Of a stretch of DNA of 64,000 nt, positions 1 through 64,000 are shown piece after piece (position 1 is the first letter of the stretch; the number at the start of each line of letters is the position of its first letter). The translations under genes and the position numbers were made by a program. Below the pieces are notes generated by a model. The model had not been told where the DNA came from and made no database searches. It saw only the letters and a list, made by a program, of their open reading frames with translations. The stretch is from Pezizomycotina sp. ARF18 (Eukaryota > Ascomycota). Location: positions 84,427-148,426 of the forward strand of contig AZLU01000096.1 of NCBI GenBank assembly GCA_002224055.1, written 5' to 3'.

Positions 1-335
1 GCGTTAAGCTTGGTGAGTTCGACACCTAGGCGCCCGAAGTATTTGTGAACAAGGTTGGTATCATGCCAGACTTGGACTCCGTAATCGTATTTAAGACCGG
101 TAGCAGGGTCGGTATACGTGTTCGTGTGCCCTCCTAGACGCGCCTGCCGCTCTACTACGGCGACAGTCCTGCCGCGATCTTGAAGGTATACGGCCGCATA
201 GGTCCCCGAAGAGCCGCCGCCAATAATGCATACGTCGCGGGTGATAATTTGAGGGGTTATGCTTTCAGCGAGTGTCGGAAAGGCAAGGAGAGAGATCGCT
301 ATGAAAGTATGTGTGAATTTCCTTGAGAGATACAT
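1..335 (-). CDS. Secreted FAD-dependent oxidoreductase, N-terminal part (runs off left edge)
   Basis: The reverse strand reads open from an ATG at 333-335 to the window edge, about 111 residues with no break. Residues 1-26 form a signal peptide (basic start, core TFIAISLLAFPTLA). A dinucleotide-binding motif follows, DVCIIGGGSSGTYAA, at about residues 33-47, then the ERxxRLGGHT segment that contacts FAD in amine-oxidase-like flavoproteins. Among characterised enzymes the N-terminus most resembles the beta-cyclopiazonate dehydrogenase/amine oxidase group, common in ascomycete secretomes and secondary metabolism. The substrate cannot be inferred because the catalytic domain is outside the window. 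The start is chosen because it alone gives a signal peptide directly before the Rossmann motif. Unlike most genes here it has no frameshift over the visible length. Confidence 0.85.
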   Translation of the reverse strand, partial: MYLSRKFTHTFIAISLLAFPTLAESITPQIITRDVCIIGGGSSGTYAAVYLQDRGRTVAVVERQARLGGHTNTYTDPATGLKYDYGVQVWHDTNLVHKYFGRLGVELTKLN

Positions 336-2144
336 CGTTAAGACAATGATTCACGCTTCCGTATGCACGTTTCGAATAATTCGAGCGATGTATAAGAGGC
401 CTTGGAAGTTCGGAACAAGATGCGACCGCCGGATTTTTATCACTTGCGCAGGAGATTTGCTTGAGAAACAAGTGTTATTGAGTTCAGAATCCTTCAGCTT
501 CTTTAAATACAATTCTTCCTCCTCTCATTTCATTAAATGAAAGCAATATCCTGTGGTAACACGGGCGCCTCTCGAACAATTTATACGTCTTCGAGGGTGC
601 GAAAATCTCACCTTCCGCTGTTTCCACACAATTAACTTTTGATTGGCGCGAACGAACTTGCATCGCACTTGCGTCAACTTACACCTTCCATCTTACTCCT
701 CCCTGTTCTTTATAAGCGAATCAGAGATTGAGTTCGATTGAGGCTGACCTGGAAGATGACGGCTGCGCTTGGACCCCCTGGTATGATTTGTTTCTCATAC
801 CTACCTGAATCGAGGAAACTTGTTTAATCACATGAACAAACATGCATCAGGGAGCTGGGTGGGGGTACACTCGCGTCGTGAACAACACGACAGATCCATC
901 GCGTTAGACCGAATCGCGAAAATGGTGACGTCTGTTGACCGGAAAAATCCGCTGCCGGCACGCCGAGCTGTTATGGGAAGCCCAAATAAACCCCTTGCCC
1001 TTGAATGGGAGAAGAAGTGGCTGAACGTGAGCGATACCGCTACAAAAACCCTTACAGTCAAAAACCGCCGCGATAAGGGATCTGTTCTCTGTCCATTGTC
1101 CTCTGGATTATCATAAATCATGAAATACGCCAATGAAAGCGCAAGATTGAGCAGTGGCGCAATATATGTTTATCCGTTGCAAGTCTATTGTTCAGATCGG
1201 CCGCCAATTCTCCTGGAATTCCCCCGGCTAGGCAGAAATTTATTGCTAAATTTACCAAGTCGTCCTTCGAACTGAAGCATTTATGGCCGCGGGCCTATTT
1301 CCGAGAGATTGAGGACCCGGCGACGCCTTGGTCGATCGCTCTGAATTAAGACGGCGCGCGTCTCTTTATCTCTCACTGCTTTTATATCAAGTCTTTCCAA
1401 ACCTACCCCGGGGGGCAATTAATATATATGTCGATAAATATGACTCCTAGCACGTCCTGATCTCGAGGCTGTGATGGTATCGTTGGGGGCTTAAAGCGGG
1501 TTTGATATTCAAATGGGTACTTTAATTTGCCGAATCTGGCTTCAAATCCGCGACATCCATTGCCCAGCTTGCAGATATATTAAATGAGCAAGGCGCGGGT
1601 AACGCTTTGAAACTGACACCGAGAATCAGCCTCGCCTATAAAGTCTGGAGTCCAATCATCAGAGAGGGCAGCTATCCGATTTGGCATGCTTCTATGGCTC
1701 ATGAAACAGTCAGCGCTACGCCGAGACTTTTACGGGCCATTCCGGCGTATCCGATACATCGTGAACCCTGTAGGGATGTGGGGCCGTGGCAGAGCAACCC
1801 TATTATCAGGTTACATACATACAACTCGGATCAATCGCCCGAGATTTAGGTGGAGAGAGTGCAAAGATGTTTAAAATAAATCCTGTTCAAATCCACGTTA
1901 GTATAATGTGCTATCCGCTCGGCTCTCGGCTTGAAAGTTTAATAATTATCCCTGGAAGAGTTTAAAGCCTGTTCATCGGCACTCTTTCAACGTGTAATTA
2001 TCAGATTCACATTCTCCTCTTATCTCGTATTTCATCATAAATTCTGTGCGAAAGGTTGTTACCAATGCCGTCGTTGTGGGATAGCGAAAATGGTGATCCC
2101 TACATAGCAGGTCTTTTTGTACGTACTTCACTTCTTATTTTAAC
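336..2144. other. Gene-free stretch
   Basis: No frame here shows a recognisable domain. The overlapping antisense frames at 820-1133 have no motif support. I see no RNA gene or mobile element. The part next to 335 should hold the promoter of the FAD oxidoreductase. Confidence 0.4.
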
Positions 2145-3363
2145 CATGGCTACGAAATTCAGGGTGCTGATATGAATATCTGAAAACCAGACCCTAGACA
2201 TCATCACTTTATTCATCACGACGTTGCTCGTCTCGAATCGTCTATATATCAGAATATTCCGGCACTGGGATGGCACATCTTTCATCGAGATGCATGGTCG
2301 TGGTCAGATGCCTTTGTTATCCTGGCCTGGCTATCGACGCTCCCGAATGTTATATACTATTGCCTGACGGTGAACTGGGAACTAGAGGCCATGGAGGAAC
2401 CTGAAGTCAGCGATTCCGTTTACAATCAATACACTGCTGGATTCACAATTGATTTTGTCAATTACATCGTTTTCTGGCTTCCGATGTACTTCGTTAAAGC
2501 TGCGCTCCTCTGTTTCTACGGCTCGCTGATCGTCTCGCGGGAAGCGGCGCCTGTGATGTGGTGGGTGACCCGACTTACCGGCGTGCTGGTGTTTGTCGGA
2601 GCCCTAACCACGGAGCTGATCTTCTTGATCCCATGTGTTCCGTCCAGCCACGATCTTTTGTCCGTGTATGTCTTTCACTTCACGGTCATTTATCTCATTT
2701 ATTGTTTCTTTGCCCCAAGAGCAAGTAATTCGCGAATAGTGTACTGACTTGTCTACTACAGGGTATCTACTTCCTCACTTTACGATGAGGGTTCTTGTAT
2801 CCCGATTCGTCATCTCCGCAATTACATTCCAGTAGTAGTTTTCCACATGGGAACAGACCTGATCATTTTTGTGATTCCATTCTTCCTCGTGCTCCGTACA
2901 GGTTTGGATCGCCAATACAAAGCCGCCGCGTCCTTTATGTTTGCGCTTGGGTTAATCTCCATCGCGTGTTCTGCTATCATGGCTTGGCTCTCAGCGGTAT
3001 CGTCCAGGGTTACGTGGACCCTTTGAGCTCGGAGAGTACGGATGGCGAACGATTACATTGGCAGTATTTTGGCGGATGGAACCCACTATTGCAGTAAGCC
3101 TTATATGCGTGCCAGCTGTGAGGAGCACATTTCGCTTGATCAAGTGGCATTTTAGAGGGAAGAAAGAGCGAGTAAGGATCAACGATTGCGCCCCAATGCC
3201 TGTTGCAGCTGCTTTGGATCTCGAAAGCGGGCTAGATGCTTCTGCCACACGAAATGATGAAGAGGCGGATGACCCAGGAAAGCCTTCAGAGGAGGCTAGC
3301 GCAAGCTCAAAGCTTCATAATACGCCTCATGTCGATGGCTCGAGTGTAGCAGGTAGTCCATGA
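2145..3363 (+). pseudogene. Fungal rhodopsin-like 7TM integral membrane protein, broken
   Basis: Several blocks match the fungal rhodopsin-domain family (PF20684-like), plasma-membrane proteins with seven TM segments and mostly unknown function. In order: LDIITLFITTLLVSNRLYIRIF (TM1), DAWSWSDAFVILAWL (TM2), a long block from 2370 with TM3 and TM4, FHMGTDLIIFVIPFFLVL (TM5), FMFALGLISIACSAIMAW (TM6) and EPTIAVSLICVPAVRS (TM7), then an acidic Ser-rich cytoplasmic tail to 3363. A good intron lies at 2666-2761 (GTATGT, CTGAC, ACAG) and restores frame between TM4 and TM5. Other joins fail: a TGA follows only nine codons after ATG 2145, the frame shifts near 2260 between TM1 and TM2, and again near 2985-3020 between TM6 and TM7. 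I call it a pseudogene because of the in-frame stop plus two shifts, but sequence error is possible. Confidence 0.75.
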
Positions 3364-22238: not shown

Positions 22239-23079
22239 ATGAAGGCCGCTCTTCTTTCCCTCGTCCCCTTCGTCGCGTAAGTTTCTCTCCCGTTCCAAGG
22301 CCTCTTGAACTATCTTGAACCCTGTACTAACTATGTATACAGTCTCGCCTCTGCCGGCGGTGCTGACTACACCAACACTCTCCTTCCTGCCGGCCCCGTC
22401 CCGGTGTACCAGGGTGGAGACAACTGCCCACCTACAGCAAGATCAAGCGTGGAGGCGGCTCCTACAGCGCTGCCGCTCCGCAGCCCATCACCGTCGACTG
22501 CTGCTGCCCCTGCACCGTGATCAAGCACGAGTGCGCGCCCGCCACCCCGGACAACCGCAAGCTCATTCACGACGACAATGTCTGCAAGAGCTTCGACTAC
22601 TCCACTTGCACCAACGGCTACAAGGGTGACGATGCCACCTACGTTCCCAGCGGTGACTACTCCGGCGAGTCCCCCGCCTCCACGGACGACTACTCTGCTC
22701 CCACAGCAACTCCGACCGATGACTGCGAGGAGGCCACCCCGACCGCTCCTATGACACTAGCTACGCTACCCCAACTGACTCATATGGCGAGTCGGCTGGT
22801 CAGAGTCCCGCTTGGAAGCCCCGTGGTCGCGGCCCTTACGGTACCGTGCCGTCCTGCCCCACTGATGACTGCGAGGATAAGGATTCCACTGCTGCTGCCT
22901 ACGCTACCCCTACTGATTCCTACGGCTCGGCTCCTACTGATTCCTACGCTACTCCTACTGATTCTTACGGTTCGGCTCCTACTGGTTCTTATGGCTCGGA
23001 TGGCAGTGACAACACCTCGTACGCTGCTGCTGACAACTCCGATAACTCCACCGACTCTTCGATTCGTCTTAGGTTTTAG
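22239..23079 (+). CDS. Secreted Ser/Thr-rich protein with Cys cluster and PTDSYG repeats
   Basis: ATG 22239 gives a signal peptide, MKAALLSLVPFVA, interrupted by an intron at 22277-22342 (GTAAGT...CTAAC...ACAG), then LASAGGADYTN. A basic IKRGGGSYSAA segment offers a possible Kex2-type Lys-Arg site. Next is a Cys cluster, ITVDCCCPCTVIKHECAP, and further Cys in NVCKSFDYSTCTNGYKG. The C-terminal half is low complexity with tandem PTDSYGSA/YATPTDSYGS units and TDDCE repeats, expected to be heavily O-glycosylated and wall-associated. The stop is at 23077-23079. Two frame breaks (after CPPT and after TAPM) fit single-base losses. No named family is recognised. A cell-surface or effector-like role is inference from composition. 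Confidence 0.75.
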
Positions 23080-24617
23080 CTCTTCAATGAGCACTAGGAT
23101 GTAATACTCAGTACGTGGAGTGGTGTATATTGATTCGAGGATAAGAGTGCGAGTTGTATCGTTTATTGTTTATGGTAATTTATATAGGCATATATTTTCA
23201 TTGCGTTGTAAAATAGTCTTTTTCGTATTTCATTTGTAATTTTGTCTTGTCATAAAAGTGTACATGTCTAGTTAGTATAGATTAATACACGTTTTCCATA
23301 AAATATCAAGATACAGTAGTATAATTGACGACTTCCGCCTTTTGTTAATTGTATTGGATTTGACATTGTGCTCTGTTCGGATTAACTTATTGATATTGCG
23401 CATGCTCGACGGATTAGGATAACTTTTATATTAATATCTTTTCAGAGAACACGAGGAGTTCGACTTCTCTGTGAGTTGAAGTTCGGCCTTAAATAGAGCT
23501 TGTACAATCGCGCCCTTGTTTTCATTTGAGTATGAGTTGACTTGATGACGCTGTTATGTTTCGCTCTAGAAGTTGATAATCAATAGTAAAATAGGAACCT
23601 GCGCTCGAGCTTGGCCCCGGGTGGCTTATACAAGGCAATACTGATATTTATCACCAAAGAGGCGAGGTAAGCATGTGCCTGTTACTGTTATATTTTTTAT
23701 ATACGGCTATATTTATAAATAATTATAATAATGCTAGGGGAGGAGACCCTTTAGAAACCCCCCCTTTTGGCCTGTGAGGCTATTATTTTTTTTTTTTTTT
23801 TTTTTTTGTATGTATAGTACCTGGGGTTATACCCCTAGACCTCTATTATTATTACGCAGTAATATAATTTTCATATATATTTACTATAGTAATAATATGC
23901 CTTTTTGTATAATGTTAGGGGTTTGGTAATCCTCAGGCCCCCGCCTGTTATACATCGTATACGTGTATTATAAGGTATTTAGGGTATTATATCCCTAGGC
24001 TTTTGTCTGCCTGCTTACGACGCTACTAGTCCACGATGACGCGTATATTAGACATAATGGGAATAGAGGTTGTTTATGTTTTTTGAGTTTTGTTTCGCGC
24101 TAAGTGCCGATATAAGGAGGGTTCATTAGCGACCAGAAAAGAATGTGCTACGTGTCAGACGAGGCAAATTTTCGCGCCGTAGGCTATTCGTGAGCAGGAA
24201 AGTTTCTTTCCCTTATGTCGGGCACTTCATGGCGAGCCCCAGCGAGCGTATCGTGTAGGTATACTTATTAGAATGGTAGTCACGTGGGCGTTAAATATTG
24301 ACAAATTGCATAATTTTCAGCGCTATTGTTAAAAGATAATGCTCTTCCTCGCAATAATTCTAATGTTTCAAGTCCTTTATAATACTAACTTCATATTAGA
24401 ATTAGATGCTATATGCAAAGAGTACAAGCAAAAATAAGACATAGCTATAAATAAGTAACAAATACCAATACTTTTAAAAAACAATCTGTTGTTACATGAT
24501 CATGATGTTCAGTTTCGTCCCCAAAGTGAAACAAAAACTATTCGTAAATAAATCCGATCCATGCGATGCTAAAAAGGAACAAAGAGTTTATAATATTTTT
24601 TGGTGTTTTAGTGAAAT
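23080..24617. other. AT-rich intergenic stretch with T-tract
   Basis: The 3' region of the secreted protein gene, then from about 23690 to 24050 strongly AT-rich sequence with a T23 run at 23787-23809 and short C-runs. It may be a decayed repeat, but no transposon domain is readable. Confidence 0.4.
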
Positions 24618-25081
24618 TTACTTCCAGTACTGCGGGCACTGCATCGTCTTGACCTGCGCCCTGATTCTGTCCGAACTCGGCAGCGCGACCATTGGTGAGG
24701 TAGTCCATGACGTTCTTGCCAACGTTGAAGCTGGGCGCGCCGTGATCGACGGCGACTACCCACGCGTTCTTGCCGTTGTAGGAGATGCTGTAGCAGACTC
24801 CGCAGCTGGGCTGTTCCAACCGCCGACATCGGGGAGGCGACGACGCCCCAACCTCCGCGACCTTGGTTGAAGTACGGGATGCTGCCGAAGGATCCCCACT
24901 TGTGAGAGAGCCCGTAGCGGCCGTCGGAACAGGCGACCGTGCTTAAGGATTGGCCGGCGTTATCGTAGGTAGCGTCCCATTTGATGGTTTGCGTCCCGAC
25001 GGTGGCGCGCGTCTCGATGGATGGGGCGGCGGAGGCGAGACCGGCGGCGGCGAGGGCGAAGAGGGTGGTGGTGAATTGCAT
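24618..25081 (-). CDS. Cerato-platanin family secreted protein
   Basis: A small secreted expansin-fold protein of the cerato-platanin (snodprot) family, located in the wall and outside the cell; family members bind chitin oligomers and can elicit plant defence. ATG 25081 starts a signal peptide ending ASAAP. Then come TQTIKWDATYDNAG, the family signature STVACSDGRYGLSHKWGSFG, GGWGVVASPMSAVGTAQ, CGVCYSISYNGKNAWVVAVD, HGAPSFNVGKNVMDYLTNGR and AAEFGQ. The fourth Cys is in MQCPQYWK just before TAA at 24618-24620. All four conserved Cys are present. Length is about 154 residues, normal. Two frame breaks, near 24815 and 24665. No intron. Confidence 0.88.
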
Positions 25082-27944
25082 TTTTACGTATTTAGGATGG
25101 CTAGATAACCGATCAATGCGGATTGGAGAAATTTATAGGTATGGGATTGTTGTTATTAGATTAGGCTACTGTAAAGCGATGATGAGAATGATGATGATGT
25201 TGTATGATGATGAAGAGGGGAAAAGAGTTCTCAGACGTCCCACAGGCTCTCATTATATACACAGCTTTCCAATTACGTCTTTCCATTTTTGTTTCCAGAC
25301 TTAGTTATACTCAGTTTAGTCTCAGCTCAGAATAGCTCATGTTTTTTTTTTTTTTTAAATCGATCGCATGATTGAAATAAATGTCACGTAACTACTAGTT
25401 TGTTATGGGTCCAGCAATGGTCAAGCTACATGCGATCGGATCTTCGGGTAATGTCAATGTAACGGTCGTCGCCTGATGGTCATGGCACGATACTATTAGT
25501 TCTATCGATAAGCACTACTTATTAGTATATCCCAGCCCTTCCGTTTCTATTTGAGAAAAACACAAAAGTCAATATACTGTAGCGACGGCATAATATCATT
25601 TTTCCAAGCTATAGCTCGCTTAGGCTTAAAGACAGCCCGAAGGATAGGAATTCGATGGAAAAACAACTAAAATCGATCCTTCTAGCTCGGGGCAAGGGTA
25701 AAGTACAGGAAGGAAGTCGCTCGTTGCTTTTGCTAGATCCAGGATAGAAGTATCTTGTTCAGAGTGTTCATGAGCATGATTTTCCGGAACCGACCGCATG
25801 CGGAACATCTAGGCAAGGATGTAATTTCTTAGCTTCTTATTTTGCATTCCTTTCTTCATGATCCTTGAAATTATCAACACGTAGCTACTCAATACAGATG
25901 GGTATACCAATATGAGTATACGATAAATCCATATATAGAGCTAATTGTTTCTGTAATCACTGCAATCTACCGCGTCTCCGGCGAGCCGCTATTTTCTGCG
26001 ATTTTAAGAAAAATAATCATTGCAAAGTTTTGGCGTGATGCTCGTTATTTTGTGGAGTGAGCCGCGGCTGATATATTTAATGATGCACTTTGCTTAGGTA
26101 CACTCCCTCCAGCCCAGCCTAGGCGACATCGCCGGCTGTGCGAAATGGTAGTAAACTGAAGATGGCATTGGTTAGAAGACGTGTTGAGAGTTAAGAAAAT
26201 TCGTCTGACTTTCCTTTGTTTTTTGATTTAAAGATCTTTGATTTTCTTCTACTAAAATTGCGAGACTTAGCTCTCGACGAAGTTTTTTGTCGCGTAGATC
26301 GTGATCAAAACAACGCAATATTGTAATTACCGAGACCATTTTCTAATATCGGAATATCGCCAATGCGGCGGAGAATTTTTCTTGACAAGGAATGCCTGAC
26401 AAAAAGTACCAGACTCGGTCGAAGAAACATTAATGTTACTCCGAGCGTTCATGGTTGTTAGCATGATCATAATAACCTAATCCTGCAGTCACTTTTCCAT
26501 CAAAACTGTTGTACTTGTCATTATAACAATTTGCTATAATGGCTGATGGAAAAACTTGTGAATAACTGAGCTCCCGCAAAACAAACATGAGCTGAAATGG
26601 AGCTGAAATATTGATTAATTGAACATTACATTGATCAGAGCATTTTCTATGCATTCCAATATCAATTTGAGAGTTCGTCCGCACGACGATTGTAAAGACG
26701 AATGACATCCTTCTGGGCTGAGGATGAGATGCATGGCGGGGGATATAAAAATGCGGGGCAAAAGGCTGAAGTGGGGGACTTATCTCTGTCTGTGCAACAT
26801 GATGGAGGGTGACATCGTAGCGATTAACCTGCTTCACTCTCCATGTTGGCTTCTCTGTGATCTTTCACCTGGAATATTTTGGCTGAGCCTTTGCTCGGAT
26901 TGATCCGATCTCCGGAAGTATCGATTCAGCCTTAAAGTTTGATCGCAGACCTTTTGTCTGTAAGCGTGTGTAATTGCAAGACATGGGTTAAAGACCGAAA
27001 GGATTTGTCCTATTTTCATTTATTGTGTTCTAGACCCTGGCTGATTGTAACTACCAGCGGCGGGAGTGCTTGCCACTCCCGATCGGCGGATTCGGTATCA
27101 CTGCGAGTCCGACACGACAGACCTTCGGCCCGATGACACTGGGGTTAATGATTTGAACTCCTAGCAAGCCTCGTTTTATAACACGTCATTTCTTGGGCAA
27201 GGTTTCTTGGAGACTGTTGTTAAACGTGTTTCGTGATATTGATGGATTGACCGACACGTCTGCTACCAGCTAGGCTTATCCATTGGTTATACCGGTCGGC
27301 GCTTATATCGCGCCGGGAACCACTAATTCGCTCCTGTGCAAGGTTCCCGGCTTGGCTGACACGGGAATGTCCATTGTACAAAGAATTGAATAGATATATA
27401 GAACCAGTGAATCTCTCAATGAAATTAGGCTATACTGATGCCGCCGAACGATGTCTCTCGAACCGCTTTCGATTGTCTGATATGCCAGAGGCTTGGTGAG
27501 ATAAAATGATCTCCGTACCGTGCTTCCATGTATGCACCCATTTGGCACCTACCACATGGAGCCACCTGTTGCGTACCGTCGAGGAGAGCACGTCGTCGTG
27601 AGATATGGCGTTTTCTTCATGGTTGCGCACTTAAGCAACTAGCACCCTGAGTCTTGATCATGCGACACTACACTTGCGTCAGGAAATGGCGATAAAAAAC
27701 AATGAAAACGCGCCATCGAAATGCAAGCAACGTCAACTCCATAACACCCCTTAGATATATTATAAATAATAATTCTATCAACACGCGCGACTGTATATCG
27801 TAGCTTCATATAACGTAGTGAGCCGTGATTTTTTCAAACTTTCAGTATCTCATTTAGGCTTGTTCGTTCTGTGCAATAATAATTACCTAAATTCTTCAGT
27901 TATTTATATATCCATATTTTGTTAATTTTTATTATTTGACCGGT
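25082..27944. other. Long gene-free stretch
   Basis: The start is the promoter side of the cerato-platanin gene. The open minus-strand frames at 26436-26837 and 26834-27019 have no motif. A T14 run lies at about 25341. I see nothing else supportable before the tandem array. Confidence 0.35.
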
Positions 27945-43470: not shown

Positions 43471-43589
43471 ATCTACGAGCATAGAACGAGGAAAATTTGG
43501 CATCCCGTCCGCTCTGCCCTAAACAAGCCTCGTATCGGTCGACTAGTACTACGGTGGGTGACCATGTGGGAATCCCGACTCTTGTAGAT
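43471..43589 (+). rRNA. 5S ribosomal RNA
   Basis: A 119-base gene with a terminal stem (ATCTACGAG at the 5' end, CTCTTGTAGAT at the 3' end), the conserved loop GGCATCCCGTCCGCTC, internal promoter part TAGTACTACGGTGGGTGACC, and AATCCCGACTCTTGTAGAT. A T-run at 43595-43602 serves as Pol III terminator. Dispersed 5S genes are usual in filamentous ascomycetes. It is identical over all 119 bases to the minus-strand copy at 55097-55215. Confidence 0.9.
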
Positions 43590-43594
43590 TCAAT

Positions 43595-53977: not shown

Positions 53978-55096
53978 ATTTTTGCATTGTTTCCCATTGG
54001 GCTTATGCTTCTAGAAAATAAAACAAAAAGGAAGGGGGCAATATTTTTTCTGTTATTTCTAGAATTCTATTCCTCACATAGAAAAAGAATCTCTCAGCTC
54101 CAAAAAGCTGTTTTTTAGATCGCTCCCTTTATTTTTCTTGCACACCGGTAATACGCGTGTGCAGGGTCTACGAATGTGTGTATTCTGGTCAAAAGTCCAT
54201 TCACGTATTAATTTTCAGCAAAGAGTTCAATTTATCTGCAAACTTACGAGATACGATGATAATGATAATACCCTCTTGTAAAGCCTCTAGACTGAAAATA
54301 CGAAAGCTCATTAGGAGGTTGAAAGAGCATAGCTGATGAGATGAAGGCGTTACTTCGTAGATGCTTCTAGTATGGTTTATCCATAAACTGTTTTATCTCC
54401 CACCCTATCTGACTTCCCCATGATCTACAATAATTGAACCATTAGTACGGAAGCACGCACTAGTTTCTTCTTTTTTCTTTCTTCCTTTTCTGCGTAGTAC
54501 ATCGCTCTGTTCATTTCTTCGGGACTCTTACAACGATACCCGCCTTATTTCGCAAGTCTTATCCCTCAGACACTGCGATTCTCGAGAATATTGGGGGGAT
54601 TTACGTCTCGGACAAACAATACCACGAAGGAATTGTCGCCGGCAAAACGGACGGATATACATCACTACGTTACCACATGGCATTGCTGACCACATATCGT
54701 CGGGATGTAATTCGGTGTAGCATTGCTTCTCTCCGGTCATGCAGAGCGCGGAGACGATTTATTTATTTATTTATTTATAACTGTTAACTGCCAAGGCTTA
54801 TTGGCTTTTTACGTGCTATAGCTATTATTGTGGCTAAGACGCGGAATTGCCCGCGAAAAAAAAAAATATTCGGAGACTTAAAAAAAGCGGAGAAGGAGGG
54901 TGGAAGTCCTCTTTTCTCTTACATTCGTCCCTCACTCCAGGGAAAAACCGGGCATGTATACTTATTCAAAGTCTCCCACATGACCATCTCTCCAATACAT
55001 GAATTTCTTGATATCTTTCAGCTTCTTTCTGTACTATTATAATTAAAAAAAAAAAAAATTACAAAAAAAAAAATTACAAAAAAAAAGAGAAAGATC
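53978..55096. other. Intergenic stretch with one possible Cys-rich frame
   Basis: A minus-strand frame at 54528-54740 contains seven Cys in 70 residues (QCYTELHPDDMWSAMPCGN...), but signal peptide and exon structure are not established. A (TTTA)n microsatellite at 54759-54778 and A-runs at 55046-55085 are the only other features. Confidence 0.35.
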
Positions 55097-55215
55097 ATCT
55101 ACAAGAGTCGGGATTCCCACATGGTCACCCACCGTAGTACTAGTCGACCGATACGAGGCTTGTTTAGGGCAGAGCGGACGGGATGCCAAATTTTCCTCGT
55201 TCTATGCTCGTAGAT
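55097..55215 (-). rRNA. 5S ribosomal RNA, second copy
   Basis: The reverse complement is identical to the gene at 43471-43589 over all 119 bases. Downstream on the minus strand the sequence runs GATCTTTCTCTTTTTT, giving a Pol III terminator. A TTTATAT element lies at -28 to -23, in the same place as in copy 1, while other flanks differ. Sequence identity between copies so far apart suggests gene conversion or recent spread. Confidence 0.9.
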
Positions 55216-57059: not shown

Positions 57060-58105
57060 TCAACGTCCAAATCTTTTCCCCTTCCATAGGCTTAAACTTC
57101 CAACCTTCCGGCGGATTCTGTATCGTCTGCCCGTACGCCCACCCAATAATACTATCCCAATTCCTGCACTTATGCTGATATTAAAATTCGGGAAAGGTCT
57201 GTTATTCCCTTTCACCCACCTATATGTGAGCACTCCAACATCCGCCTGGCACATCAGAACCATCCGTATCATTTCGATGCAATGATCTAGATGCGTGCGG
57301 ACCATATCCGGATGATCAGTGAACTCCTTCTCGTTCTTAGCTTTGTAGTAGTCAACGTTGAAGTAGGTAGCTTGCGGAGAAAGTTCAGGCAGTGGAGCTG
57401 GTGACCGGCTTCAAAGTCGGCCATGAAACGCCGCCTTGTGCTTCCGGGAGGCGGATCTCTTCGGAGGGATTTTTGCCGATGGAGATTAGGTCGGACTCGG
57501 AGAGGGAGAACATTCCGGCTACCGGAGAGCAAAGAGGTCAGTAAGTTTGTTGCGCAATCGAGAACATGAAAGAAAATTTTAGGATAAATAAAAAACGTAC
57601 GTCCGCGGAGGTACTCCCGCAGCATCTAGCTCCTCTGAAGGTTTGCCGCGGTATTTTGACGAAGCGTTCAGAGATCCGTGGAAAGTCTGATAGTGTAGGC
57701 TTTTATCGATTTTTTTGAATGCCGGCGCTATGAATTATGGCAACCCGTTAGTTCACCATTCGGATCGATTGGATCAGAGCGATGAAACTTACAGTAATCC
57801 GACGTCCGCTCGACGCATATACCATCACCATGATACTTCCAGTATAAGCCTAAAGAGAGCGCGATGATGGCACTTATGACTACCGATCCTGCGAGGATAC
57901 CTATGAGGATACCTTTACGTAGGGAATGCCGCGACTGTTGTGTAACCAGAGATCTTATGGCTACAGGTGATGTAAACAAGAGAGGATCTCCTGATTCGTC
58001 AGTCCTGGAGCCGTTCTCATCGCTATCATCGGAGTACTGTAAGGTCTTCTCGGGTGTATGAAGTGGTATGTATCTTTCGTTGTCGTCTTCATTGTTCGCC
58101 GCCAT
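57060..58105 (-). CDS. UstY-like (DUF3328) oxidase, three exons
   Basis: DUF3328 proteins (UstYa/UstYb family) are membrane-anchored oxidases that crosslink or cyclise residues in fungal ribosomal peptides. ATG 58105 starts MAANNEDDNERYIPLHTPEK, then one TM helix (GILIGILAGSVVISAIIALS) and CVERTSDY. Intron 1 is 57792-57728 (GTAAGT, CTAAC, ATAG). Exon 2 reads SPAFKKIDKSLHYQTFHGSL, KYRGKPSEELDAA, the conserved block of the family. Intron 2 is 57600-57519. Exon 3 reads FSLSESDLISIGKNPSEEIR, then both metal motifs, GHQLHCLNFLRK and HLDHCIEMIRMVLMCQADVG, then HKCRNWDSIIGWAYGQTI. The HxxHC pair is complete. Three 1-base breaks in exon 3. The exact stop is uncertain (57060 in one frame, 56920 in another). 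Confidence 0.88.
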
Positions 58106-58464
58106 TTTCTTGATTCTAGAGATTACGCTTTGTGGCGACATTTGAAGTATATAATTCAAGAAAGAAACGGTTTTTATGAAGAAAAGAGATGTTCTGACAA
58201 TATTTATCAATGTAATCTGAATCCTTATAATGATTTTCTTGGTTTACATAATTGTCAAGCTCTTCAAGTTGCAAGGAATTGTTCGAATTATATCACCACG
58301 CACATCGATGGAGCTGCCCAAAAGGCTTACAATCGTATGATCCTTTTCCACATTCCCGAATTTATAATTTCAAGAATTATCTCATCGCGATCTCAAAAAC
58401 GGATAAGACAGTTGACAAAAATTCAACTATAGCCCTGTAATATCAGCGAAGTGATCGGCACTAG

Positions 58465-58907
58465 CACGTCTGGGCAGAATACTTCTCGCAAAAAAAGACT
58501 TTCATTCTAAAATCTATTACGGCATCAAAAAATCAGGGGCCGTAAGCTGCCGAGGAGGGAAGGAAAGAGAGGAAGAAGCGGTCCTTATCGACAGTACCGA
58601 TGACCAAGATGCGATAAAACTGCGATGGAATCTCTTTCCTAATCGCAAAAAACAATTTTCCAGGTTCAATACGCCCGGGGGCCCATACTGGATTGCTGAC
58701 ACGAGTTAGCAGGGGTCAGGGATGAGACATTGGAGATATCAACATCCGCGATATTGGGTATATGCGATACTTCCCCTCAGGCTCTCCCGATATCACCGAG
58801 TTGGAGGCGTATATACGCAGCAAACAACAGCGCCGCGAGAAAAACCGTTCTATGAGTCGCTGGAGACTATCATGCGGGAAAACAACTCGGACGAACTTTA
58901 TAAATAA
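58465..58907 (+). CDS. Unknown protein, C-terminal exons, divergent to the UstY-like gene
   Basis: Exon 58465-58704 is open in one frame (LGRILLAKKDFHSKIYYGIK, EREEEAVLIDSTDDQDAIKL, RWNLFPNRKKQFSRFNTPGG, PYWIADTS). An intron at 58705-58780 (GTTAGC...CCTCAG) joins in frame to SPDITELEAYIRSKQQRREK, then after one base PFYESLETIMRENNSDELYK and TAA at 58905. The 5' part is not resolved; it may start near 58230 (MIFLVYIIVKLFKL, a TM-like helix), which would give a divergent promoter shared with the UstY-like gene. No family recognised. Confidence 0.45.
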
Positions 58908-60439
58908 TCCTGTCATTCTCCTAAACCGAGACACTGTGAGTGTTGAGAAGTTGAGTTATAAAGGCACAAATCTACCAATTTAGGATAGTTAATCGTCGTG
59001 GTCTCTCCCGAATAGTAAACCCCCGACTTGATCTCGAGGGCAGTTGGCGGATGTGAATGTCAGCAATATCGACGATGCCATCCCTAAATAAAACCTTCTG
59101 CTTGATAGAGCAAAATAGGATATATTATCTATATGGACCGTTCTATATCCCCTCTTTCGAAATTGGTTATCGAAATGAAGCGGATTAACTATGTCTTGAA
59201 ATGAGACCGGGCAGTGGAAAACTCTGCAAGCTTACGCGAGACTTGGGGAAATCAAAAGCAGGTGGTAAATAGCTAGCGAGCTACGCCGAAAATTGAGTCT
59301 CCAAACTCTTTCCCTATCACGATGTCGTAATATGCTTGAAGTCGCAATATCGTGAGCTATCCCGGCCCTGATGGCTGAGAGAATTGTATACGATCGGTTT
59401 GGGAACAGCGAAGCCGCTGCTTCTTTCAACTTGGGAAAAGAAATAGGCAAGAGGCGGACTTATGTCGTGAACCCGCCTTGTCGGCGGCTTGAAATTGCGA
59501 CACAACCGAGAACCACTACATCGCGTCATGGTCGAGCTTCATTAGATTATTTTTCATCTTCCATAGCAGCAATTGCAGAGGTGTTCAGAAGCAGATATTA
59601 ACTTCAACTTCATATTTAAATTGTATCATAAGCTCTGTACTATGGTTATCCTGCTTCCAAATATGATCAACAAAAAAAAATGATACCTAGAGCTAAATTA
59701 GAAGTAAGAATTCCTCTTCCTTAGTTATCTACTATTGCGAAGAGTGCGTCGCCGATAATCTTCAGAAAGTTGGGGCGTCGAAATAGCAGTATACAGGATG
59801 TCTATACTATCTATCTAACCTTCGAAACAACCTGCCGCTTTTTGTCCGGATGTTTCGGAGAGGAGGAACACGTGCAAGTAAAAGTATTCCGATTGTGAAT
59901 GCGAATTGGTAAGAAACTTCGATCTGAGTAAGTATCTTACGGTCTGGACCGACAGTCATCACGAGGGTCAGGGTTGGTGAATTAGCCTGTCGTTAAGTCG
60001 CAATCTCATCAGACCTGTCAATCTAGGGCGCAGAAGAAGTTAGGAAAGAGCTTTTAGAAAACAGGTCTAGGAGCTAGAGTGATTGCTCCATTCTAGTATC
60101 TTGCTAGCTGATAATTGGAAAGTGAGAGTACCACGGTGCTTCATCATCATCATGGACGATACAGTGGCCTAACTGGATACCTCTGACGACTCGATATTGC
60201 TAAAGGTAAATATCATCATTTTTGCAACTTCGAGATATAAATAAGAGCCCCTAGAGCCATCCTGTGATTTCTTTTCATCATCATCAACATCACCATCTTC
60301 TCCAGCTTAAGCACTTTAAACACTCTAGCTTCCGGCTTCTTTGCACCAATAATTCACTTCCACAGAAATTTAATACACCTCCCTTTTCCTTCTAATCAAT
60401 TTTCAACACCCTTCTCCTCTTATATTTACAATTAGAACA
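58908..60439. other. Intergenic stretch and promoter of the precursor gene
   Basis: No supported gene; the antisense frames at 59232-59601 lack motifs. A TATA-like GATATAAATAAGAG lies at 60232-60245, followed by a CT-rich leader up to ATG 60440, as in highly expressed fungal secreted-protein genes. Confidence 0.45.
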
Positions 60440-61340
60440 ATGCAGATCAAGAACGTCGCCGCACTTGTTGCCTCGCCAGCGTTGCGCTGCTGCTCTGTCT
60501 CCGAGCAAAAGTCCGACTTCAAATTCTCATACGCTCACGATGCGAATACCAAGCAGGTTGCTGCTCAAAAGCCTGACTTCAAGTTTTCCTACGCCCATGA
60601 GGAACACAAAGTCGACGCCCGCGCTGAGAAGCCGGACTTCAAGTTCTCCTATGCTCAGAAGGAGAAGCCTGACTTCAAGTTCAGCTACGCTCAAGACGCC
60701 AAGTTGAACACCCGTGCTCAGAAGCCTGACTGGAAAATAGCTTACGCTCATGAGTCTAAGCACGATACTCGTGGCGAGAAACCTGACTTCAAGTTCTCTT
60801 ACGCTCAAAAAGAGAAGCCCGACTTCAAATTCTCGTACGCTCATGACGCCAAACACGAGGCCCGTGCCGAGAAGCCTGACTTTAAATTCTCCTATGCGCA
60901 CGATGCTAACGGCAAGGAGGTCGCCCAGAAGCCTGACTTTAAGTTTTCTTACGCCAAGGACGCCAACAAGAAGACGGAACAGAAGCCGGACTTCAAATTC
61001 TCCTACGCCAAGACGCCAAGCTTGAAGCCCGAGAGGTTACCAAGCCCGATTTCAAGTTTTCCCTACGCAAAGGATGCGAACAACAAAATTGCTAAGAAGC
61101 CCGACTTTAAGTTTCCTACGCCAAGGATTCTAATGTTGAGGCCCGCGAGGCTACCAAGCCCGACTTCAAGTTCTCTTACGCCACGATGCTCCTAAGGTGG
61201 ACACTCGCGCCAAGAAGCCCGACTTCAAGTTCTCCTATGCTCACGTTACTGAGCCGGTCAAGCTTGATACAAGGAGCCTCACGGCGAGAAGCCTGATTTT
61301 CAACTTTTCTTACGCCCACGATGCCACCAAGTCTTCATAA
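60440..61340 (+). CDS. Secreted repeat precursor, candidate fungal RiPP precursor (KPDFKFSYA repeats)
   Basis: ATG 60440 starts MQIKNVAALVA and, allowing for three shortened homopolymers, a standard fungal signal peptide with Ala/Leu core up to VSEQ. The rest is about 15 imperfect repeats: a near-invariant core KPDFKFSYA, one variant KPDWKIAYA (unit 5), the first unit KSDFKFSYA and the last with FNF. Linkers of 3-16 residues alternate between short QKE (units 3, 6) and longer ones such as HDAKHEARAE. The stop is at 61338-61340, so about 300 residues. This matches precursors of the dikaritin/epichloecyclin kind: secreted, many copies of a short Tyr-containing core, next to a UstY-like oxidase. 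Canonical Lys-Arg sites are absent. Frame breaks lie in the signal and near 61015, 61045, 61110, 61190 and 61285. Confidence 0.8.
60506..61320 (+). repeat. Tandem coding repeat, about 15 units
   Basis: Units of about 36-66 bases built on AAGCCTGACTTCAAGTTCTC-type sequence. Codon choice differs between units (GAC/GAT, TTC/TTT, TAC/TAT) while the amino acids of the core stay fixed, which argues for purifying selection on the peptide. Confidence 0.85.
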
Positions 61341-63639: not shown

Positions 63640-64000
63640 GGTGTCTAGGTTCTTCTGCAAGGTCCAAGGCGTAAGAAGACCAAATCTTTCTCGCTTAGGT
63701 CTGGGGGTCAGGATAACCGTGTCTACCGGCTTCGAAAGGGTGACCTTCCGAGTGATCGGTTCGTTAAAGCTTCCTTTAGATGAGCGGGAATTACAGATAA
63801 CAGCAACCGTTGAATCTTTGTCTCTATAAGGTTTATATTTGGCAAAGACAACCTCCTCTCTTCTTTCCCATGGTCAAAAAAGGTACCATAGTTGTCCGTT
63901 TTGTAGCTCAAGTGCGGAGCGAAGCGTAGTGCAGGTGGACCCTAAAATAATAACATCCAACTATCGCGTAAAGTTGGAGCATATGTCGTTCAAAATCTCT
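63640..64000 (-). CDS. Unrecognised exon, continues beyond the right edge
   Basis: Minus strand: a possible acceptor TTATTTTAG at about 63942, then GPPALRFAPHLSYKTDNYGT, FFDHGKEERR, and after one base VVFAKYKPYRDKDSTVAVIC, NSRSSKGSFNEPITRKVTLS, KPVDTVILTPRPKRERFGLL, stopping after LDTRKT near 63638. Coding composition is good. It could be an upstream exon of the gene at 62814-63240. No domain recognised. Confidence 0.4.

What the first reader, a model, noticed from the sequence alone, without database searches (positions are those of the whole stretch)
60440..61340. Candidate new fungal RiPP precursor with about 15 KPDFKFSYA repeats and no Lys-Arg sites
Seen directly: a signal peptide followed by about 15 repeats with a fixed Lys-Pro-Asp-Phe-Lys-Phe-Ser-Tyr-Ala core and variable linkers; synonymous changes are common while the core is invariant. 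Known: UstA/GigA-type precursors are secreted, repeat a short Tyr-bearing core and are cut by Kex2 at Lys-Arg. The Phe-Lys-x-x-Tyr order resembles my memory of the epichloecyclin core. Unusual: units here are joined by AxKKP, ARAEKP or QKEKP linkers without Lys-Arg, so another protease or relaxed Kex2 use would be needed. Inference: the product is a cyclic peptide containing F-K-F-S-Y.
Basis: partly seen in the sequence, partly recalled or inferred. Interest (0 to 1): 0.88.

Follow-up and report, generated by a model that had tools for sequence, protein, structure and literature searches.

The report
Fungal repeat peptide precursor lacking Lys-Arg
A fungal gene encodes about fifteen copies of a short tyrosine-bearing peptide next to a gene for a peptide-crosslinking oxidase, so it probably makes a family of modified small peptides, but its copies are not separated by the usual cutting signal and may instead be cut at single arginines.

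Summary
At 60440-61340 (+) a gene encodes 15 copies of K[P/S]D[F/W]K[F/I][S/A]YA joined by variable linkers. Synonymous change between copies is high while the core protein barely changes (pS 0.80, pN 0.03). As far as readable, no linker has KR, RR or RK. The frame is broken at the N-terminus and five times after unit 10; chaperonin genes and a second array in the same assembly are broken likewise, so this looks like assembly noise. A genome search shows UstYa/DUF3328 matches at two loci. One lies beside this array and has two HxxHC motifs; the other (contig C87) lies beside a KR-separated tyrosine-bearing array, also divergent and 2-3 kb off. Best reading: a dikaritin-type RiPP precursor. Of 14 linkers, 8 carry a single Arg, 6 of them with Leu/Val at P4, matching the published extended Kex2 motif. 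I propose Kex2-type monobasic cutting into pieces with one to three cores, then UstYa oxidation at Tyr. Cleavage, cyclisation and product are inferred, not shown. Surveys that filter on dibasic sites would probably miss such genes. New variant of a known kind.

The parts
60440..61340 (+). Repeat precursor gene: 15 cores K[P/S]D[F/W]K[F/I][S/A]YA with 14 linkers; open frame to 61195 as read, cores after unit 10 in changing frames
60440..60508 (+). Probable signal peptide region; the hydrophobic stretch is split between two frames as read
   Evidence: no signal-peptide predictor available
60722..60748 (+). Variant core KPDWKIAYA (unit 5): aromatic, Lys, Tyr and Ala kept
60569..61288 (+). Stretch holding the 8 single-Arg linkers (after units 2, 4, 5, 7, 10, 12, 13, 14): VDAR, LNTR, HDTR, HEAR, LEAR, VEAR, VDTR, LDTR; candidate monobasic cut sites
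57063..57410 (-). UstYa/DUF3328 gene, piece with second HxxHC motif (HLDHC, 57279-57293); PF11807 65.3 bits
57290..57625 (-). UstYa gene, piece with first HxxHC motif (HQLHC, 57389-57403), in another frame; PF11807 21.5 bits, below the cut-off of 25 on its own
57728..58141 (-). Probable N-terminal piece of the UstYa gene with one long hydrophobic helix; assigned by position, no UstYa match in Pfam
58142..60439 (.). 2.3-kb interval between the presumed start of the divergent UstYa gene and the precursor; TATAAA at 60236; 6 ORFs given to Pfam, no match (not every small ORF was scanned)

Best explanation
The gene encodes a secreted multi-core precursor of a dikaritin-type RiPP. Shown: 15 tyrosine-bearing cores under strong amino-acid constraint, a UstYa/DUF3328 gene about 2.3 kb away (3.1 kb from its Pfam match) in divergent orientation, and no KR, RR or RK separators as far as readable. 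Inferred: the precursor enters the secretory pathway; Kex2, or a kexin-like activity, cuts after the single Arg of the [L/V/H]-x-[A/T]-R linkers, giving nine pieces that hold 2, 2, 1, 2, 3, 2, 1, 1 and 1 cores; peptidases trim the ends; UstYa oxidises the core, most likely joining the Tyr side chain to a neighbouring residue. Unit 5 would give a second product with Trp and Ile. I put about 0.85 on 'precursor partnered with this UstYa' and about 0.55 on 'cut at single Arg by a kexin'.
For: Neighbourhood: PF11807 rings at two loci only in 46.36 Mb (4 matches from 5 scored candidates, a lower bound), one of them beside this array. A direct search with the C96 UstYa piece finds only itself and C87. 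Both UstYa loci found (2 of 2) lie beside a divergently transcribed tyrosine-bearing repeat array: here 3.1 kb from the Pfam match to the ATG, on C87 about 2.2 kb from the nearest Pfam match to the array's open frame. The C96 UstYa has both HxxHC motifs, in two frames; PMC12048977 (passages) says two HxxHC motifs were suggested as a reliable mark of RiPP-related DUF3328 proteins. Print: DUF3328 genes peak at the position next to repeat-precursor genes, and 65.6% of precursors with a DUF3328 neighbour carry Tyr in the repeat (PMC7329392 section 7). Constraint: pS 0.80 versus pN 0.03. Cleavage: 8 of 14 linkers have one Arg and no core has any; P4 is Leu or Val in 6 of 8 against 0.93 expected from shuffling each linker (0 of 100,000 shuffles reach 6; the linkers are related copies, so this is not a true P value). 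PMC8528282 (part 1 of 3): P1 almost exclusively Arg, P4 Leu or other aliphatic, Thr among accepted P2 residues, LxxR used as the expanded motif. Glu stands at P1' or P2' in 5 of 7 readable sites; acidic and small residues there are over-represented at sites that Kex2 cleaves (PMC2515848 section 9). Products consistent with cleavage after single Arg were seen for three heterologously expressed repeat proteins (PMC9769878, passages). The genome has a proprotein-convertase P-domain match.
Against: Asp at P3 is called unfavourable for Kex2 and stands at P3 in 4 of 8 sites; P2 is Ala, not in the listed top P2 set, in 4 of 8; P4 is His in 2 of 8; one readable site has Lys at P2', a kind under-represented at cleaved sites. 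Six of 14 linkers have no Arg, so kexin alone cannot free every core. The same genome's other array uses ordinary KR (17 of 19 cores), so nothing in this fungus forces monobasic sites. No tyrosinase, S41 peptidase, methyltransferase or transporter was found near the array: of 40 window ORFs given to Pfam (10 each; at least 5 ORFs of 110 aa or more in 44-64 kb were not given), two UstYa pieces match, and the only other enzyme matches above a cut-off are those of an FAD oxidoreductase fragment at the far end of the window (3-350). No homologue of the precursor was found, so conservation across species is untested. The signal peptide is not readable in one frame. No expression or mass data.
Confidence: 0.6

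Rival explanations
1. RiPP precursor partnered with the UstYa, but cut by something other than kexin, such as a yapsin-type aspartyl protease with monobasic preference or an unlinked endopeptidase acting at Lys and Arg alike.
For: Every readable linker has a Lys or Arg before the next KP, including those without Arg (NTK-QVAAQ, NGK-EVAQ, NKK-TEQ, NNK-IAK, QK-E). Many products of one repeat protein ended with Lys in PMC9769878 (passages). A monobasic-specific yapsin is listed among the references of PMC2515848.
Against: The Leu/Val at P4 (6 of 8 Arg sites) and the acidic P1'/P2' fit kexin. In ustiloxin B biosynthesis the product was barely detectable without the kexin KexB (PMC4740483, abstract).
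Confidence: 0.25
2. A secreted structural repeat protein (wall, surface or repellent-like) that is not cut into peptides and stands beside a UstYa gene by chance.
For: No KR, RR or RK separators as far as readable, Lys-rich regular repeats, Tyr in each unit.
Against: Two UstYa loci in 46.36 Mb: lying within about 3.1 kb of one by chance is of the order of 3 in 10,000 (my arithmetic, 2 loci x 6.2 kb / 46.36 Mb; a lower bound on loci). The only other UstYa locus found also stands beside a Tyr-bearing repeat array. No family above its cut-off in Pfam, or in NCBIfam, which is built for bacteria and archaea.
Confidence: 0.1
3. A decaying cluster: the frame breaks are real and the gene is a pseudogene.
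For: Five frame changes between successive cores over 780 bases, a break in the signal peptide, and a UstYa gene in several frames. The density is higher than in the C87 array (5 in 780 against 3 in 1125 bases).
Against: Chaperonin genes in the same assembly are broken too: at least four neighbouring pairs of matches lie 1 or 2 bases apart in different frames, and 13 of 33 matches hold in-frame stops, some of which may be introns. The C87 array changes frame 3 times in 1125 bases. The longest stop-to-stop frame in the 64-kb window is only 273 aa. The core keeps its amino acids across the breaks.
Confidence: 0.1

Closest known systems
Dikaritin / UstA-type precursors (ustiloxin, phomopsin, asperipin-2a) with DUF3328 oxidases
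   Same: Multi-core repeats with Tyr, hydrophobic N-terminus, adjacent UstYa-type gene with two HxxHC motifs; a single UstY homologue, as in asperipin-2a (PMC6514808)
   Different: No KR, RR or RK between cores as far as readable; single-Arg or Arg-free linkers; no tyrosinase or S41 peptidase found near; no published core with these letters found
Epichloecyclin precursor GigA
   Same: Repeat precursor with signal sequence; Lys and Tyr in the product (Lys methylation and oxidative Tyr cyclisation are reported, PMC6514808, passages)
   Different: GigA is described with four repeats and KR sites; here 15 repeats and no KR. Core letters not compared
Kex2-processed repeat proteins (KEPs)
   Same: Tandem repeats, likely secreted, core of 9 aa
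   Different: The survey definition asks for three or more repeats of 8 aa or more between KR, KK, RK or RR (PMC7329392 section 13); here KK lies at 3 of 14 linkers and the other three at none
Kex2-processed pro-domain effectors with LxxR sites
   Same: Single-Arg, aliphatic-P4 cut motif (PMC8528282, part 1 of 3)
   Different: Those are pro-domain removals from effectors; here the motif recurs between cores of a repeat precursor

Membership tests
Dikaritin RiPP cluster | DUF3328/UstYa protein with two HxxHC motifs next to the precursor | tested here: met
   PF11807 at 57177-57371; HQLHC and HLDHC, in two frames as read
Dikaritin RiPP cluster | Precursor with repeated core motifs, Tyr in core | tested here: met
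   15 cores; constraint on the core
Dikaritin RiPP cluster | N-terminal signal peptide | tested here: inconclusive
   Hydrophobic stretch present but split between two frames; no predictor at hand
Dikaritin RiPP cluster | Dibasic Kex2 sites between cores | tested here: not met
   No KR, RR or RK in 14 linkers as far as readable, 9 of them in one unbroken frame, against 17 of 19 cores followed by KR on C87
Dikaritin RiPP cluster | Tyrosinase, methyltransferase, transporter or S41 peptidase in the cluster (clusters lacking one or more are known) | tested here: inconclusive
   None near among 40 ORFs scanned, not all ORFs; nearest tyrosinase match about 141 kb away on C96; one weak S41 match on C321. 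The contig ends 2.7 kb downstream of the array
Dikaritin RiPP cluster | Oxidatively cyclised product | not testable with these tools
   Needs mass spectrometry
KEP (Umemura 2020 definition) | At least 3 tandem repeats of 8 aa or more between KR, KK, RK or RR | tested here: not met
   Judged by reading the linkers, not with the author's program; KK at 3 of 14 linkers, two of them KKP
Extended Kex2 site (LxxR type) | Arg at P1 and aliphatic P4 | tested here: met
   Leu or Val at P4 in 6 of 8 Arg linkers; 6 of 14 linkers have no Arg at all
Alpha-type mating pheromone precursor | KR followed by STE13 XA/XP dipeptides, no DUF3328 neighbour | tested here: not met
   No KR; DUF3328 neighbour present; criteria from PMC6339444 (passages) and PMC7329392 (abstract)

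The most novel reading that the evidence does not exclude
A class of UstYa-dependent fungal RiPP precursors has given up dibasic separators and uses single-Arg, aliphatic-P4 linkers mixed with uncut linkers, so that UstYa acts on pieces with two or three cores and could join cores to each other, making multi-core crosslinked peptides. Such genes would be absent from surveys that filter on KR, KK, RK or RR.
Probability: 0.3. Interest if true: 0.68.

Novelty: new variant of a known kind. Interest (0 to 1): 0.52.

Why it matters
Two large surveys of fungal repeat precursors filter on Kex2 sites of the KR, RR, KK (and RK) kind between repeats (PMC7329392 section 13; PMC6339444, passages). One smaller study also used a repeat finder with visual inspection (PMC9769878, passages), which need not miss such genes. 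If this gene is a working precursor, the dibasic filter hides part of fungal RiPP diversity, and pairing every orphan UstYa gene with any nearby secreted tandem repeat would be a simple fix. The two-locus genome gives a clean internal comparison, a KR array and a KR-free array each with its own UstYa. It makes one question directly testable: whether kexin cuts monobasic linkers in RiPP maturation.

Tried and rejected
Homology of the precursor: 3430 candidates shared words, none scored E <= 0.001. A first database control with the C96 UstYa piece gave 5 candidates and no hit, but an almost full-length C87 UstYa ORF found 41 proteins, so fungal proteins are held at least in part and the absence is only mildly informative. 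Phage records, viral contigs and prokaryote genomes: no match, as expected for a fungal gene. Paralogues in the own genome: none beyond the gene itself (a lower bound). Papers holding the core letters: none in the held library; for the C87 core none. Papers joining DUF3328 or UstY with 'monobasic': 0, and 4 whose listings are unrelated. Phrases such as 'lacking Kex2' gave, in the 20 of 498 papers listed, none whose title or abstract start concerns UstYa precursors without Kex2 sites. All this is limited to the open-access library, and supplementary tables could not be searched.

Considered and dropped: alpha pheromone (no KR, DUF3328 neighbour); KKP as cut sites (Pro at P1' and Lys at P1, disfavoured: the first from recall, the second); reading the downstream minus-strand ORFs at 61.6-63.3 kb as cluster enzymes (no family above a cut-off in Pfam or NCBIfam; no similarity to the C87 region). 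Structure prediction was not run: the repeat protein is likely disordered and the UstYa gene is in pieces. The species was not identified; that it is a fungus rests on UstYa, cerato-platanin and fungal-rhodopsin-like matches.

Full report
What is there. The window is the last 64 kb of contig C96 of a 46.36-Mb assembly in 408 contigs. From 60440 (+) a 251-codon open frame carries ten cores in frame. Five more start in frames 2, 0, 2, 1 and 0, up to 61340. The 15 cores start at 60509, 60569, 60629, 60665, 60722, 60779, 60815, 60872, 60929, 60983, 61042, 61097, 61156, 61215 and 61289. Eight of the ten in-frame cores read KPDFKFSYA; unit 1 has Ser for Pro, and unit 5 reads KPDWKIAYA. A degenerate pattern search gives 14 matches against 0.49 by chance, and its exact form occurs nowhere else in the genome. 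A protein search of the genome finds only this gene.

Selection. Among nine in-frame copies (unit 5 set aside) the proportion of synonymous differences is 0.80 and of non-synonymous 0.03; with unit 5 the values are 0.76 and 0.07. Eight of 11 variable columns are third positions. The copies are therefore old relative to their synonymous change, and the amino acids of the core are held. Conversion between copies would erase synonymous differences as well, so it does not explain the pattern.

The broken frame. Five frame changes lie between successive cores over 780 bases, and the hydrophobic N-terminus is split between frames. Three controls point to the assembly. Among 33 chaperonin (PF00118) matches, at least four neighbouring pairs lie 1 or 2 bases apart in different frames (two on C24, one each on C53 and C99), and 13 of 33 hold in-frame stops, some of which may be introns. 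The repeat array on C87 changes frame 3 times over 1125 bases, a lower density than here. The longest stop-to-stop frame in the 64-kb window is 273 aa.

The neighbour. On the minus strand at 57.1-58.1 kb lies a UstYa/DUF3328 gene, itself in pieces. One piece scores 65.3 bits to PF11807 and another 21.5, below the cut-off of 25 on its own. HQLHC and HLDHC stand in two frames. A third piece with one long hydrophobic helix is assigned by position. A genome-wide PF11807 search gives four matches at two loci, C96 and C87. The search scores only the best candidates, so this is a lower bound.

The in-genome control. Beside the three UstYa matches of C87 (88.9-94.1 kb, minus strand), about 2.2 kb away and on the plus strand, lies a canonical precursor array. 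It has 19 cores of the form LG[N/D]YG[T/V]F as searched, and 17 are followed by KR within six residues. The two misses are one unit with an altered linker and the last one listed. So 2 of 2 UstYa loci found in this genome have a Tyr-bearing repeat array alongside, in the same divergent layout. On C96 none of the 14 linkers has KR, RR or RK as far as readable. Ten units and the nine linkers between them lie in one unbroken frame, so indel errors are unlikely to have hidden KR there. The script lists 13 of the 15 C96 cores; units 12 and 15 fall outside its pattern and were judged from the three-frame reading.

How it may be cut. The linkers, in order, read HDANTKQVAAQ, HEEHKVDARAE, QKE, QDAKLNTRAQ, HESKHDTRGE, QKE, HDAKHEARAE, HDANGKEVAQ, KDANKKTEQ, then in other frames or across breaks DAKLEAREVT, KDANNKIAK, KDSNVEAREAT, DAPKVDTRAK and HVTEPVKLDTR (partial). 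Their lengths run from 3 to about 16 residues (spacings 36 to 74 bases from core to core). Eight have one Arg. Its P4 residue is Leu or Val in six; shuffling each linker gives 0.93 on average and never 6 in 100,000, with the caveat that linkers are copies of one another. PMC8528282 (part 1 of 3 read) gives for Kex2: Arg at P1, Leu or another aliphatic at P4, and Thr among tolerated P2 residues. It also calls Asp at P3 unfavourable, which counts against four of the eight, and Ala is not in its list of top P2 residues, which counts against four. Glu at P1' or P2' in five of seven readable sites agrees with the sites cleaved in PMC2515848 (section 9); one of the seven has Lys at P2', which does not. 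PMC9769878 (passages) reports products that appear to end after single Arg for three heterologously expressed repeat proteins, and after Lys for another. The genome has one P-domain match; its protease domain was not checked. Cutting at the eight Arg would give nine pieces with 2, 2, 1, 2, 3, 2, 1, 1 and 1 cores. The rest of the trimming would need other peptidases, as is also unsolved for ustiloxin (PMC6514808, passages).

What was not found. Pfam scans of 40 ORFs of the window (10 each, the precursor and four UstYa-region pieces among them) show no tailoring enzyme other than UstYa near the array. At least five ORFs of 110 aa or more in 44-64 kb and many smaller ones were not scanned, and broken exons may be missed. 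An FAD oxidoreductase fragment lies at the other end of the window. The contig ends at window position 64000, 2.7 kb downstream. Tyrosinase matches exist elsewhere, the nearest about 141 kb away on the same contig; one weak S41 match lies on C321.

Known or new. The literature seen (PMC7329392, abstract and sections 7 and 13; PMC12048977, PMC6339444, PMC9233826 and PMC6514808, passages) describes fungal repeat precursors with Kex2 sites, as a rule KR, between cores. Searches for the core letters and for monobasic UstYa precursors found nothing relevant, within an open-access library only. The thing works like a dikaritin precursor but fails the dibasic-site criterion, so I file it as a new variant of a known kind and not as a member of the KEP family as defined. 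UstYa homologues are in the protein database (41 hits for a C87 UstYa), while the precursor has none; that is common for these genes (2560 of 7878 KEPs stood alone without homologues, PMC7329392 abstract).

Noticed in passing
G000:C87:88900-97600 (L014, L015): Second UstYa cluster: three PF11807 matches and a KR-separated array with cores LG[N/D]YG[T/V]F; an ORF with a pro-kumamolisin activation domain lies nearby (L014:2024-2746).
   Followed up: partly
window 24611-25132 (-): Cerato-platanin family ORF (PF07249, 36.6 bits) with an N-terminal hydrophobic stretch.
   Followed up: no
window 3-350 (-): FAD/NAD(P)-binding oxidoreductase fragment with a signal-like N-terminus at the window edge.
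   Followed up: no
window 2184-2744 (+): ORF with a weak match to the fungal rhodopsin domain, below its cut-off (22.9 against 27 bits).
   Followed up: no
window 43471-43590 (+) and 55096-55215 (-): Two dispersed 5S rRNA genes.
   Followed up: no
window 22367-23101 (+): ORF of 245 aa with a tandem repeat at 22898-22999, no Pfam match at E <= 0.01.
   Followed up: no
window 60627-60954: Higher-order repeat of 150 bases within the array: short QKE-linked pairs recur before an Arg-bearing unit.
   Followed up: partly
whole assembly G000: Frame breaks in chaperonin genes point to an error-rich assembly, so gene models from it need care.
   Followed up: partly
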